A stretch of DNA of 64,000 bases from Pyrenula massariospora (lineage: Eukaryota; Ascomycota; Eurotiomycetes; Pyrenulales; Pyrenulaceae): assembly GCA_021030905.1 (NCBI GenBank), contig JAGFMI010000018.1:124001-188000 (forward strand), in the 5' to 3' direction. The notes under the pieces are model-generated. The model made no database searches and was not told the DNA's origin. It saw only the letters and a program-made list of their open reading frames with translations. The translations under genes were made by a program, and so were the position numbers. Shown here one piece after another: positions 24,932 through 30,191 of the stretch; the first letter of the stretch is position 1; each line of letters opens with the position of its first letter.

Positions 24932-27554
24932 CTAATCCGGAATGGACATCTTTAATAGTTGGTGTTCCGGCACTCGACAGTGAACTCCCGAGGAAATGCA
25001 ATTCAAGCAGAGATCAAAATCCCCATTCCTACAGACGATACAACGAAAAGAAACCTCCCTCACAAGAAACCCACACTCATTGCAAATAACCGTCACATTG
25101 CTATCTTCATGGTCATACTTCTTCATAAGCTCCGTCAAAAGCTCAGCTGTTCCCGGTAGAGGGTCCTTAGAGTCAAATAATGGCAACAGCGCCCTCGCCG
25201 GTAGTCTCGCTGAAGGATCGGCGCGTCTGCAGTGACCTATGATTGTATCAAAATAATCGGGAACCTCTGCGCCGCTGCAGCGAGGCAATTCGACGGGAAT
25301 AGTATGAGCTGCCGTACAAGAATGACGAGGCCAATTGTTGCACGCGTTGATCCTACAAAATAAGCCAACCACCGTCCACCTATGCTGTGCTATGAGCCAT
25401 AAAGTCATGCCAAGGGAGAAAAGATCCCCCCGGAAACTGGCAATTTTTTCCGACGGAATGTTGATGGGCGCTTCGTCGCGGAGTTCTGGAGCCAGCCACG
25501 CATGTCCAGAGGATTGGTTATATTGGAAAGTACGGTGCATGAATGTTGGCTCTAAGACGACACTGCCATCCGCTCTAATGCCGATACCCTTCCTTAGACT
25601 AAATCCGCCCATAGCGATGCCTTTGGCATGAACATCTGAAATAGCACCAACAATTTGTTTTGCCCATAGCTCTCTGATAAGCCATGGTATTTGTTTTCCT
25701 TCTGCTTCTGCTCCGATGAACATCCAACAGAGTGATGGTAGAGGTACTGACTCTACAAGAAAGGATTTGAGGTGCTTTCTCGAATCATCTAGGACCACGC
25801 CAATAAATTTTGTGACATTATCGCAGCCTTGTAGAATGAACCTCTGCTTCAGAAGGTTGATAAAGTCGCGAAGCTTGTTTTCACCAGCGAATCCTGCCGT
25901 TCCGAAGGGAATTTTTGTTTCGATGCATTTCTGAGATTCTACATGGACAATATAACTGTATATGCTTCGGCGCTTCAGCACGATAATTTCACTTTCTAGG
26001 AATTGTGGACAGCCCATATCATCGATGTCCAGCAGCAGGTGCTGTTCGTCGATCATCTGAGACTCTTCGAGGTCCTCCGAGACTACTGTGGACGATGTAT
26101 CGACGATGATTTTGCCATGGGCATCCTCTACTACTGTCAAGGAGAGACTCGTGACTGTATCGAGCAGTGGCTTGCTCTTGAGAACACTTTGCAGTTGGCC
26201 TTCAAGATTCTTTTGCGTTGAAACATGGGAGAAGTCATCCCCAATACCATCCGAGAACGCCGAATGCTGGCAGGAGCTTACGACAGTCGCAGCTAGCGTC
26301 ACCTTTTGCCAGGATCTTGGAGTCTTAGAGTACAATAAAAACATTTTACATACACGTTGCGTACCAATGGATTGTAATTTATGCATCGCAACGAGTGTCA
26401 CTGTTCCGTCGAACATGTTTTCTAAGTTGTACCGTTCGGGAAGGAACGTAGAACCAGTTTCGAGGAAATAGTCGGGGCTGCCAGAAAACTTGTTCTGGAG
26501 TCGCTCAACGGATCGGTTGGAGGGTGCTTCGGAGAACCGGGAGACGCAGTCAAAGAAAATTGCAGCTTCAGATTTTGAACGCTCCGAAAGGCTAGAGAAA
26601 GAGTGTTCTTCTGAGCTCTCGCGGTCAATGACTCGATGCTTTCCTTTTGACAGTCTGCGCCATCTCCTTCGCCAATTTCTTTCATTGGCATTGAGGTTTT
26701 CTGTCAGATGCTGTATTTGCAGACGATTGGTACTTAATTCTCGAAATATCTGAGCAATATGCTCGCCAAGAGAAGTGTCTTTGAGGATCATCGCATGTTG
26801 GGTGTCTTTCACCAGAGATGCGATCGTGTTTGACGCTTGCTCAAAAAACACTCGTTGATGCTGATCTACATTAACTGGAATGTTTTGAGTAGGAGTTGGA
26901 TCGTTTGACGACATCTGTTCTGTTCCGGGGAACTCCGAGGTTTCGCAGTTCTGCTGTGCTAGATCGGTATGCGATAAGGTGCTAATCTGAGAGCCTAGTA
27001 TAGCATTCTGGCTCTCAGATCCGTGTTCGAGAATCCGAGGCGAATGCGCAGAGGAAACATCATTAGATCGATTAGCTTGGAAAGGTGTATGTAACTTGTT
27101 TGACCTAACATGGGGAATTAAAGTCTGCAGGTATTATTAGAACTATTTAGACATACAAATTTGAAATGGCCAAACAATCAATCAATCTAGCCTTGATTGT
27201 TTCAATATCTCTGGCGAAGCTCCGTAGGCGAGAAGTTTCTTTGATAAGAGCAGTTCGTCGGGCCTTCATAGTCTCGGAATTTGCATGATATATCCGAGAT
27301 CCAAAAAATTCGTTGATCTCCTGTACTTTAAGTCATGCTGTGTTCATATTTTTAGTCAGGCTATCCGTCATTTGCTCCCTATCATTGGCCAAATTTTCGA
27401 CTTCTGAGATAATATCTCCGAAATGCTCTAACTCCCTTTCCAGACGGGCAAATTCTGAAGGCGTTGTAGTAGCTGACTTGATGGTTCCTACAGCGCTCAA
27501 AGACACGCGCAACATGGTAAGAACACCGGCAGTAATGGAGACAGGCTCCGCCAT
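24932..27554 (-). CDS. HeLo-like/STAND-N - pseudokinase - ZZ-finger protein with in-frame TGA
   Basis: Two exons, 27157-27554 and 24932-27104, joined over a 52-bp intron (GTATGT ... TTAG); 856 codons. Residues 1-130 (start MAEPVSITAGVLTMLRVSL) match the helical N-terminal domain of fungal STAND and HeLo-like cell-death proteins. Codon 74 is TGA (27333-27335), yet the same frame continues with helical sequence (LKVQEINEFFGSRIYHANSE), so the stop interrupts the domain. Residues about 200-300 are a helical linker. A kinase-like fold follows (about 500-770): VHAKGIAMGGFSLRKGIGI sits where HRDLKPxN belongs, so the catalytic Asp is missing; APE is kept (WLAPELRDE), as is the F-helix (GDLFSLGMTLWL). 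The last 50 residues are a ZZ zinc finger (CNEC, CIVC, DLCLNC, two His). Either an inactivated allele, a gene started downstream, or stop readthrough. Confidence 0.75.
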
Positions 27555-28856
27555 GTTCGGCAGAGTTGAAGTAAGTTTAGAAGGTATTCAAGATTCGTCA
27601 AAGCTGATAATACGGAAAGCAATCAGTTTTCAAGGCCAATGGGTGGAAAGTTGGACGGAGATGATGCTGGCCACCTGAGGTTATCATGAATAAGAGAGGA
27701 AGGACGCAAGCTGTGGTTGCGTTAGCAGTTGCGGCTGGGAAACCAGAGCAGGCAATCCATTTCTACCAGTGGAGTGCACCGAAGCCCGTCAGCTGAAACT
27801 AAAATAGCGACGTCTGCCTTGTGAGGAATTTTTCAATAATGCTTCTATGGCTTGCAACGTTCGAAATGCAAGAGTAAGGGTCGGTTGGGGGCATATGGCA
27901 AACGTCCTACGAGATAGGCTGCATCGTGGGCTATGAGGCAATGAATCGACAATGCACTGCAGGGACAGCCAGGGTGCCTTGTTCGATGAATGAAAAATTG
28001 TGTGATAAGAGTTGCTTCCCAAAGTCAGGGATGCAATTGAAAGCATTTTATGGCTGCAATAGGCCATATAAATTAAAAGCAGTCAATCAAAACAAGTCTT
28101 AATCATCGTCAGGTGCGATCACTCAACATCTTTCAAAGAAAGAGTTCACCGGTGAGACCAAAATTGGGTTCGCTGACATTAGAGGGCAGCCTCGTAGAAT
28201 TAGCCACGGCAGAACCATCCCAAATTTGAAAATCAAAGACAATACACAGATTAGGTAGGAATCTAGCTCCAAGGGATGAACGAAGAATTCTGTCTCATTG
28301 AGATGTCGTGGTAGAGTATACATTGTTTGCTCTAAAGGTGCAGAATAGCATTCAAAAGTCTTCAAGCAATGAGCTTCTGCCCGTATAAATTCCGCAGAAA
28401 GTGGGCTTGACAGTACCGATCGAGCAAGTTGTGAATGCAGTGTGGCAGTCCCACCTCCAAGTGGGAACATCTTCATGACCTAGAAATGGTATTTGACAGT
28501 GGCTAAGACTTCTCTAGTCTGAATGACATGCAAGTGAAGTCGGGGGCGTTGCGATAGGCATATTACGATCTCGGAAAGCATAGCGCGGTTCTTTGGGTGC
28601 TCGAAGTGGACTAACTAAGGTAGGTAGTGACCGGAGCTTTTGCGGAGCCTGACCGAGCTCCCAAGCTTGACAATCCCGATTTTTCGGCTTGTCCTAATTC
28701 ACTCTTCCTGCCTAGGAAAACGGTCGTTCGGACTTGGATGTAATGATTGCAGAGTTTATGAGAACCACGCGTCGATGAATAGCGTGTCACATGGGATAAC
28801 CGATCCGACAATTCCCCAGCACTTGAGCAACTTCAGCCTTCTCGGACTAATTCTCC
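27555..28856. other. Intergenic between pseudokinase gene and PDX1
   Basis: Divergent upstream regions. A minus-strand frame at 28123-28476 (117 codons, ATG start) contains a hydrophobic stretch (LICVLSLIFKFGMVLPWLIL) and reads somewhat protein-like, but I recognise no family and no splice partners. The rest shows nothing of note. Confidence 0.45.
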
Positions 28857-30191
28857 ATGACCTCCAGAATCGCATCACGATTGCTCAACCAGCAACTTCG
28901 CTTTCACGCGAACAGACGAAGCTTTCAGACATGTTCATCATGCCTCGAAGCTCACAATTTTACCATGCCGGCAATGTCGCCTACTATGACCGAAGGCAAC
29001 ATCGCCAATTGGAAGGTCAAGGAGGGTGACTCTTTTTCCACCGGTGATGTTATATTAGAGATTGAAACGGACAAGGCGACGATGGACGTGGAGGCACAAG
29101 ATGACGGAGTCATGGCGAAAATACTTCAGCCCGAGGGATCCAAGTCCGTGCAGGTCGGTAGCCGAATAGCGGTTTTGGCAGATGAAGGCGACGACATCAG
29201 CTCCCTTAAGATTCCGCCCGAAGATCCGAAACCAGCAGCGAAAATAACAGCACTGGCGAAAGAAGAACCAGCTCCTGCAGAAGAATCTTCATCGAAAGCT
29301 AGTCCCTCTAAATCATCCAGCCCTCCACCATCTGGCCCTGGCCAGAGTAAAAAATACCTACTCTACCCCTCCGTCAGCGCTCTTATTCATGAGAAACACA
29401 TCCCAGAATCCGAGATTTCAAAGATCCCCGCCTCTGGGCCAGCTGGCCGTCTTCTCAAAGGCGACGTCCTCGCGTACCTGGGTACAATCGAATCCTCCTA
29501 CTCGTCCACACAAAGCGCCCGGATCAACAAGCTCAACCACCTTGACCTCAGTAACATCAAAATCTCTACTCCATCAGCACCTTCAGCTACTAAAGCCCCT
29601 TCTGCCGCGACCTTTGCTCCTCTTCCACCGCCAGGACCGACAACCGTAACAATCTCCCTCCCCATCTCCCTCACATCTCTCCTCACAGTGCAAAAACGAA
29701 TAACATCCACCCTTGGCATCACAGTCCCCCTACCCACACTTCTTGCCCGCGCCACTGACCTTGCCAACGACGATCTCCCCCGCACCAAATCCCAACAAGC
29801 CTCCAAAGACGATCTATTCAACGCCGTGGTCGGCCTCCAAGCTCGAAACCCAAAGATCAGCACCGGTTCCTACATTCCCGACATTACAGCCCTCCCTCCC
29901 ACTCCGCCATCAACAAACCCCTTAGCCGCTCCGTCTCGCCCGTCATCAACAAGAAGAATAAAAGAGCCAGACATTATCGACATCCTTAGCGGCAAGAACA
30001 GCTCTAAGCCATCACGGCCGCCTCTGCCGGTGACAGGCTCGCCCGGGACGATCTCCGCTGGTGCCGCGCCAGGTGCTGCCATGAATCTGTTCAGTCTGGA
30101 AGTCCCGAAGGAGGAGGAGAGGAGGGCGAGGACATTTCTCGAGAGGATAAAGACAGTCATCCAGGTCGAGCCGGGACGATTGGTGCTGTAA
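28857..30191 (+). CDS. PDX1: Pyruvate dehydrogenase complex protein X (E3-binding protein)
   Basis: Structural subunit that anchors dihydrolipoamide dehydrogenase (E3) to the E2 core of mitochondrial pyruvate dehydrogenase. Single exon, 444 aa. Residues 1-35 are a basic, acid-poor targeting sequence. A lipoyl domain follows from MPAMSPTMTEGNIANW, with the lipoyl lysine at 73 in EIETDKATMDVEA. A Pro/Ala/Ser-rich linker leads to the peripheral E3-binding domain (about 168-208, YPSVSALIHEKHIPESEI ... GRLLKGDVLAYL). The C-terminal part has a vestige of the acyltransferase fold (VTISLPISLTSLLTVQKRI) but no DHRxxDG catalytic motif. This separates it from E2 (LAT1) and makes acetyl transfer unlikely. 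Confidence 0.92.
   Translation: MTSRIASRLLNQQLRFHANRRSFQTCSSCLEAHNFTMPAMSPTMTEGNIANWKVKEGDSFSTGDVILEIETDKATMDVEAQDDGVMAKILQPEGSKSVQVGSRIAVLADEGDDISSLKIPPEDPKPAAKITALAKEEPAPAEESSSKASPSKSSSPPPSGPGQSKKYLLYPSVSALIHEKHIPESEISKIPASGPAGRLLKGDVLAYLGTIESSYSSTQSARINKLNHLDLSNIKISTPSAPSATKAPSAATFAPLPPPGPTTVTISLPISLTSLLTVQKRITSTLGITVPLPTLLARATDLANDDLPRTKSQQASKDDLFNAVVGLQARNPKISTGSYIPDITALPPTPPSTNPLAAPSRPSSTRRIKEPDIIDILSGKNSSKPSRPPLPVTGSPGTISAGAAPGAAMNLFSLEVPKEEERRARTFLERIKTVIQVEPGRLVL

What the first reader, a model, noticed from the sequence alone, without database searches (positions are those of the whole stretch)
24932..27554. HeLo-like/STAND N-domain fused to a pseudokinase and a ZZ zinc finger
Seen: the spliced frame joins an N-terminus of the MAEPVSITAG type, a helical linker, a kinase-like fold lacking the HRD aspartate (VHAKGIAMGGFSLRKG in its place) but keeping APE and the F-helix, and a C-terminal ZZ finger. 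Known: HeLo and HeLo-like domains are membrane-active parts of fungal cell-death systems, and MLKL-type executioners pair a four-helix domain with a pseudokinase. Inference: this gene may be a fungal necroptosis-like or incompatibility factor in which ZZ senses a ligand or protein N-terminus and the pseudokinase gates the helical domain. I do not know of a described ZZ-bearing version.
Basis: partly seen in the sequence, partly recalled or inferred. Interest (0 to 1): 0.75.

Follow-up and report, generated by a model that had tools for sequence, protein, structure and literature searches.

The report
Fungal death-domain pseudokinase zinc-finger family
The gene belongs to a family in one fungal genome whose members share an inactive-kinase-plus-zinc-finger body but carry different front domains of types linked to fungal cell death, which suggests an immune-receptor-like design; this particular copy has a stop codon in its front domain.

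Summary
The three-part architecture is real, with one correction. On the minus strand a HeLo-like exon (27554-27157) joins across a predicted 52-nt intron to a 733-codon frame with a kinase-like domain lacking the HRD aspartate and a ZZ finger. But this copy has an in-frame TGA at 27335-27333; no convincing intron removes it, and four paralogues have a sense codon there.

The larger result lies outside the window. The same genome holds 11 more intact copies of the body (27-55% identical) and one decayed copy. Of the 12 N-termini, 8 match the HeLo-like family PF17111, one is a HET domain, one an alpha/beta hydrolase (SesB-like, my label), two match nothing. All three kinds are published NLR effectors. 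A family profile finds MLKL's pseudokinase as best solved-structure match (E 1.4e-11), with TTK and LIMK1 close behind.

I read the family as NLR-like, NTPase-free receptors in which pseudokinase plus ZZ gate an exchangeable death effector (inferred). A 2025 review notes fungal HELL-pseudokinase proteins, and a 2025 paper reports ZZ-bearing NLRs; my searches showed no ZZ-pseudokinase fusion or effector exchange on it. No function was tested; structure prediction failed.

The parts
27336..27554 (-). N-terminal exon, first 73 codons (MAEPVSITAG...), start of the HeLo-like domain
   Evidence: PF17111 20.8 bits; exon 63% identical to the exon of paralogue L011 (E 2.2e-48)
27333..27335 (-). In-frame TGA stop inside the HeLo-like exon; sense codon in the four paralogues compared
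27157..27332 (-). Rest of the N-terminal exon (HeLo-like domain, second half), open after the TGA
27105..27156 (-). Predicted 52-nt phase-2 intron (GTATGT...TTAG). Of 9 other copies examined, 6 give a phase-2 intron at the end of the N-terminal exon as best candidate (L024, L026, L027, L031, L032, L033); in L030 it ranks second; L028 and L034 gave no candidate joint within the size limits used
24932..27104 (-). Exon 2: linker, conserved region of unknown fold, pseudokinase and ZZ, to the stop codon 24934-24932
26654..26860 (-). Conserved linker (consensus AQIYRELG...), present in HeLo-like, HET and hydrolase copies, weak or absent in L017-L019; possibly brace-like (inference)
26036..26470 (-). 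Conserved region of unknown fold before the pseudokinase (FFPEQY...PRxWxKVTV)
   Evidence: no significant PDB match; model of low confidence
25178..26023 (-). Kinase-like domain, residues 371-652
   Evidence: profile best PDB hit MLKL E 1.4e-11; 99.7% probability against the kinase-like domain of L022
25604..25606 (-). Gly510 at the position of the catalytic HRD aspartate
25304..25357 (-). CX4CX7CX3H insert in the kinase C-lobe, invariant in 12 of 12 bodies and missing in L022; may bind zinc (inference)
24962..25084 (-). ZZ-type zinc finger (C684-H724)

Best explanation
The gene is one copy of a 12-member paralogous family of intracellular proteins built like all-in-one immune receptors. A catalytically degenerate, MLKL/TKL-type kinase domain with an invariant Cys-rich insert and a C-terminal ZZ finger form the sensing and gating body; a linker joins it to an exchangeable N-terminal effector (HeLo-like in most, HET in one, alpha/beta hydrolase in one). 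Most likely the ZZ finger, alone or with the Cys insert, binds a protein ligand; the pseudokinase changes state and releases or clusters the effector, which kills or arrests the fungal cell (membrane damage by HeLo-like; enzymatic action by HET or hydrolase). Shown by sequence: architecture, family, different front domains on one body, loss of catalytic residues. Inferred: splicing, ligand binding, gating, cell death. The window copy, with its TGA, either is a disabled member or makes a body without its effector from a later start.
For: Family of 12 open bodies of 566-752 codons; the 11 others are 27-55% identical to the window copy. N-termini: PF17111 at E <= 0.01 in 8 of 12, HET E 1.6e-14 in L029 and Abhydrolase_6 E 0.0022 in L025. 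The HET frame joins the body by an intron with full-consensus donor, branch-site match and CTAG acceptor (score 7, reached by 4 of 180 abutting ORF pairs of the window). Tree: the hydrolase copy is sister to the window copy (88/88, below the tool's star) inside a clade whose third member is HeLo-like (98/99), so the front domain was probably replaced on a shared body. Same genome, same strand, within 3 kb: 3 of 43 PF17111 matches and 1 of 13 hydrolase matches lie upstream of NACHT; within 6 kb, 3 of 7 ZZ matches lie downstream of NACHT, 2 of these apparently in one open frame. Profile best hit MLKL. HRD Asp kept in 1 of 12, Asp at the DFG position in 2 of 12, both in none. Literature: HeLo-like, HET and, more indirectly, SesB-like are linked to regulated cell death (PMC9815663, passages).
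Against: No function, expression or ligand tested. The N-terminal profile found no significant solved structure; MLKL's four-helix bundle did not appear. Structure predictions from single sequences failed (mean pLDDT 36.5 and 45.0). TTK and LIMK1 score nearly as well as MLKL, so the MLKL rank may reflect shared degeneracy. Hydrolase evidence is one exon below Pfam's cut-off with no significant PDB match, and its joints to the body are inferred. Two of 12 N-termini match no family; L028 and L034 gave no joint. The place of the HET copy in the tree is unresolved. Only one genome was seen: no related fungal genome was available here, and the viral and prokaryote collections gave no relative, which says little about fungi.
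Confidence: 0.5

Rival explanations
1. The window copy is simply a pseudogene of an active family: the TGA removed the effector, and the still-open 733-codon frame will decay.
For: In-frame TGA with no convincing removing intron; sense codon in the 4 paralogues compared; a decayed relative exists at C2:504 kb.
Against: The 733-codon frame and all eight ZZ Cys/His are intact; a truncated product from Met74 is possible. The dinucleotide indices show no RIP mark. This concerns the copy, not the family, so it does not exclude the best explanation.
Confidence: 0.55
2. The family are cargo or quality-control receptors: ZZ works as in p62/Nbr1, the pseudokinase is a scaffold, and the N-terminal domains act in turnover or localisation, not death.
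For: The ZZ part resembles CBP, p62 and fission-yeast Nbr1 ZZ (profile E 4.5e-5 for CBP and 2.6e-4 for an Nbr1 fusion; single sequences only E 0.0044 and weaker); the three p62 aspartates are all present in 4 of 12 (PMC6098011 passages).
Against: The attached domains HeLo-like, HET and SesB-like hydrolase are kinds found on NLRs (PMC9815663, PMC10197012); the same genome puts ZZ near NACHT behind ankyrin repeats and in an ankyrin-HET protein.
Confidence: 0.2
3. HET and hydrolase are separate upstream genes that merely abut the body gene.
For: No transcript data; the L025 joints are inferred; the L014 frame has a Met at residue 70 of the frame (sequence) that could start a separate gene; no joint was found in L028 and L034.
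Against: The HET frame runs into a full-consensus intron in frame with the body. 4 of 180 control pairs reach that score; the 180 include the window gene's own joint, so the background is lower. HeLo-like copies have the same layout.
Confidence: 0.12
4. Decoy reading: the pseudokinase or ZZ mimics a host protein that invaders attack, as proposed for kinase domains at the C-terminus of some fungal NLRs, and loss or modification of the decoy frees the effector.
For: PMC12258605 (section 14 read) reports 57 NLRs with zinc fingers, 17 of them ZZ, and nine C-terminal kinase domains as candidate integrated decoys; L022 in this genome is a more intact relative of the kinase domain.
Against: The body is conserved over 12 divergent copies rather than freshly captured; L022 lacks the Cys insert and has no ZZ match.
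Confidence: 0.15

Closest known systems
MLKL (animal) and plant MLKLs
   Same: Helical N-terminal domain, connecting segment, kinase-like domain without catalytic residues; the kinase-like profile has MLKL as best solved match
   Different: N-terminal domain is PF17111-like and can be HET or hydrolase; extra conserved region before the kinase fold; Cys-rich insert; C-terminal ZZ. Plant MLKLs were seen only in listings, abstracts and review passages
Fungal HELL-kinase/pseudokinase proteins noted in PMC12881547 (2025 review, passages read)
   Same: HeLo-like domain in one protein with a kinase/pseudokinase
   Different: The passage is one sentence; 'zinc finger' and 'ZZ-type' do not occur in the main text; no effector exchange in the passages seen
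Fungal NLRs (HeLo-like, HET or SesB-like plus NACHT/NB-ARC plus repeats; some with ZZ)
   Same: Same set of N-terminal effectors; ZZ in 17 Sordariales NLRs (PMC12258605) and downstream of NACHT at 3 places in this genome
   Different: No NACHT/NB-ARC or repeat match in the bodies; a pseudokinase sits in their place
p62 and Nbr1 (ZZ-bearing autophagy receptors)
   Same: ZZ finger; the Asp-x-Asp positions of p62 are largely kept
   Different: No HeLo-like, HET or kinase part is recalled for them; last two ligands are Cys-x4-His here (12 of 12)

Membership tests
HeLo-like domain (PF17111, PigL_N / Helo_like_N) | Profile score above curated cut-off | tested here: inconclusive
   Window exon 20.8 bits against 27.2; 3 paralogue exons above (30.3, 41.0, 32.4); 8 of 9 scanned at E <= 0.01; two pieces of L034 none
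HeLo-like domain (PF17111, PigL_N / Helo_like_N) | Membrane-active, cell-death-inducing helical bundle | not testable with these tools
   No assay; no significant PDB match by sequence
MLKL | Kinase fold lacking catalytic residues | tested here: met
   By sequence profile only; the structure model was unusable
MLKL | N-terminal four-helix bundle homologous to MLKL 4HB | tested here: inconclusive
   No MLKL 4HB hit with profile A4; PMC9815663 links Helo_like_N matches to the MLKL domain (passage)
MLKL | Activation by phosphorylation through a RIPK-type kinase | not testable with these tools
   No data
Active protein kinase | HRD and DFG aspartates | tested here: not met
   HRD Asp 1 of 12, DFG-position Asp 2 of 12, both together 0 of 12; window has Gly and Glu
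ZZ zinc finger (PF00569) | Profile match and eight Cys/His | tested here: met
   25.5 bits, over cut-off, (20.9 against 21.4); eight Cys/His in 12 of 12, seventh is Cys719; 5 of 12 members match PF00569 and 6 of 12 ZZ_ADA2 at E <= 0.1
Fungal NLR (STAND) | NACHT or NB-ARC NTPase domain | tested here: not met
   No such match in the window protein (E <= 1) or the 12 bodies (E <= 0.1)
Fungal NLR (STAND) | N-terminal effector drawn from a shared exchangeable set | tested here: met
   PF17111, HET and a hydrolase before one kind of body; splicing predicted, not shown
p62-type N-degron receptor | Three aspartates contacting the N-terminus of the ligand | tested here: not met
   Window Asn685, Asp705, Asp707; all three Asp in 4 of 12 bodies

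The most novel reading that the evidence does not exclude
Some filamentous fungi have a second class of all-in-one immune receptors beside NLRs, without an NTPase: an MLKL-like pseudokinase with a Cys-rich insert and a ZZ finger serves as switch and sensor, and the death effector in front (HeLo-like, HET, SesB-like hydrolase) is swapped in evolution just as in NLRs.
Probability: 0.4. Interest if true: 0.82.

Novelty: new variant of a known kind. Interest (0 to 1): 0.62.

Why it matters
If true, the MLKL plan (killer domain gated by a pseudokinase) exists in fungi as a diversified family whose effector is interchangeable. That would show that the gate is generic, separate what the pseudokinase does from what the killer domain does, and give 12 natural variants in one genome to test ligand sensing by ZZ. 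It also offers a route into a question that the 2025 review calls open (passage): what stimuli activate the putative sensors of fungal cell death.

Tried and rejected
Structure prediction: two single-sequence jobs gave no usable model (mean pLDDT 36.5 and 45.0), so no fold search was run. Relatives in viral and prokaryote collections: none. Active kinase: rejected by the motif table. RIP as the cause of the TGA: dinucleotide indices of the gene are ordinary. An intron that removes the TGA: none convincing. Conserved region 222-366: no significant PDB relative. Hydrolase exon: no significant PDB relative. Gene-cluster partner: large ORFs of the window were listed but not scanned with profiles; none of the 65 NACHT matches lies within 20 kb of the window gene on its strand, while two other family members have one (C32 at 7 kb, C27 at 17 kb; opposite strands not tested). 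Endocarpon paper PMC3897900 (passages): expanded 'protein kinase-like' families, no architecture given, not usable. Drechmeria paper PMC4859500 (passages): not relevant. Literature: 9 searches ran; three lists were cut (12 of 211, 8 of 25, 10 of 42). No title, abstract start or passage I saw describes a ZZ-pseudokinase fusion with HeLo-like, HET or SesB-like; subscription journals and preprints are largely not held, and supplements were not read.

Full report
What was checked. The finding describes a minus-strand gene at 24932-27554 with an N-terminus of the HeLo-like type, a kinase-like middle and a ZZ finger. Reading the DNA confirms the layout. Translation can start at ATG 27554. The first exon is followed by a predicted 52-nt intron at 27156-27105 with donor GTATGT, a branch-site match and acceptor TTAG, in phase 2. 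The second exon ends with the stop codon at 24934-24932. The search for introns that would remove it gave a best score of 5, against 7 for the main intron. The exon is 63% identical to that of paralogue L011 in a match that runs over both sides of the TGA, and the four paralogues compared carry a sense codon at that place. So the copy is interrupted, while the body frame of 733 codons is open; its first Met is residue 74.

The family. Searching the window's own genome (37.8 Mb, 33 contigs, no name given) with the body found 16 matches: the window copy; 11 further full-length frames (open frames of 566-752 codons, 27-55% identical over the matched part); two fragments at C2:504 kb, one with stop codons, that I take as one decayed copy; one kinase-like protein, L022; and one small ZZ protein, L023. 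The 12 bodies align with 40 invariant columns. These include eight ZZ Cys/His (C684, C687, C698, C701, C709, C712, C719, H724) and a second set, C593, C598, C606 and H610, in the kinase C-lobe.

The kinase-like domain. No kinase family matched the window protein alone at E <= 1, but 6 of 12 members match Pkinase at E <= 0.1, best 8.8e-8. A profile of the 12 domains finds, among solved structures, MLKL pseudokinase first (E 1.4e-11), then TTK (2.2e-10), LIMK1 (7.1e-10) and RIPK1 (3.5e-8). It aligns with the domain of L022, which is above the Pkinase cut-off, at 99.7% probability; five column-shuffled controls gave 0.2-0.3%. The HRD aspartate position is Gly in the window copy and Asp in 1 of 12; the DFG position is Asp in 2 of 12; no copy has both (positions read from the TTK alignment). 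TTK and LIMK1 score close behind, so I call the domain TKL/MLKL-like rather than MLKL.

The N-termini. PF17111 (named PigL_N in this Pfam copy; PMC9815663 lists the same accession as Helo_like_N) is matched at E <= 0.01 by 8 of 12 family members, three of them above the cut-off. L017 matches nothing but its sister L018 does; L019's two upstream pieces match nothing. In L014 the upstream frame is a HET domain (E 1.6e-14) joined to the body by a 71-nt intron with GTGAGT donor, branch-site match and CTAG acceptor. In L010 the upstream exons suggest an alpha/beta hydrolase (IAHSYGG seen directly; Abhydrolase_6 E 0.0022, below the cut-off, for the central exon; no significant PDB match). 'SesB-like' is my label for it; PMC10197012 describes SES-B-like domains as alpha/beta-hydrolases. 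Its three introns are inferred. In the HeLo-like copies a phase-2 joint at the end of the first exon is the best candidate in 6 of the 9 others examined, second best in L030, and not found in L028 and L034. As a control for the joints, 4 of 180 abutting ORF pairs of the window reach the splice score of 7; the 180 include the window gene's own joint, and others may be real introns. In the tree of bodies the hydrolase copy is sister to the window copy (88/88) inside a group of three with the HeLo-like copy of C1 (98/99); the place of the HET copy is unresolved.

Genome context. The genome has 65 NACHT matches and 43 PF17111 matches at E <= 0.01. On the same strand within 3 kb, a PF17111 match precedes NACHT at 3 places and a hydrolase match at 1 of 13. 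Of 7 ZZ matches, 3 lie downstream of a NACHT domain within 6 kb; two of these share the open-frame length and register of the NACHT match, and all 3 follow ankyrin repeats. One more lies in an ankyrin-HET protein. The window gene itself has no NACHT match within 20 kb on its strand; two other family members do (C32 at 7 kb, C27 at 17 kb).

Function. My reading is that the body is a switch and sensor, and the front domain the effector. Shown by sequence: the composition, the different front domains on one body, the loss of catalytic residues. Inferred: the splicing, that ZZ binds a protein ligand, that the pseudokinase gates the effector, that the outcome is cell death. For ZZ, p62 residues D129 and D149 hold the N-terminal amino group and D147 the first peptide bond (PMC6098011, passages; that paper also says that not all of these are kept in NBR1). 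The corresponding residues 685/705/707 are Asp in 8, 7 and 10 of 12, all three in 4 of 12, and Asn/Asp/Asp in the window copy. Free N-terminus recognition is therefore possible for some members and weak as a claim for this one.

What is known. [quoted passage not shown] PMC12258605 (passages and section 14) reports zinc fingers in 57 Sordariales NLRs, 17 of them ZZ, and kinase domains as putative decoys. PMC9815663 and PMC10197012 (passages) list HeLo-like, HET and SesB-like as NLR effectors. None of the passages or listings seen describes a ZZ-bearing pseudokinase or effector exchange on it; some listings were cut. That is why I rate it a new variant of a known kind. Structure prediction gave nothing usable.

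Noticed in passing
L022 (G000:C17:63921-64796): A kinase-like protein with an open frame of 1008 codons, the same pre-kinase region, GDF at the HRD position with the Asp kept, and no Cys insert or ZZ match; looks like a less degenerate relative of the body.
   Followed up: partly
L002, L003, L005 (G000 C8:621935, C30:536016, C1:1307254): Ankyrin-repeat proteins with a ZZ finger after the repeats, lying downstream of NACHT domains (C30 and C1 apparently in one open frame), that is, probable ZZ-bearing NLRs.
   Followed up: partly
L004 (G000:C30:1867056-1867193): Ankyrin repeats, ZZ and a HET domain in one open frame.
   Followed up: partly
L020 and L021 (G000:C2:504408-504954): A decayed relative of the body in two fragments, one with stop codons.
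   Followed up: no
L023 (G000:C2:250676-250858): A ZZ protein whose layout recalls the autophagy receptor Nbr1 (recalled; Pfam gave only a weak ZZ_ADA2 match).
   Followed up: no
G000 C18:251959, C4:681445, C32:1291268: HeLo-like domain matches above the cut-off that contain stop codons, so inactivation of such domains may be common in this genome; whether introns explain the stops was not checked.
   Followed up: no
window 28851-30188: Divergently placed ORF resembling a lipoyl-domain subunit of a 2-oxoacid dehydrogenase complex (recalled from its sequence, not scanned).
   Followed up: no
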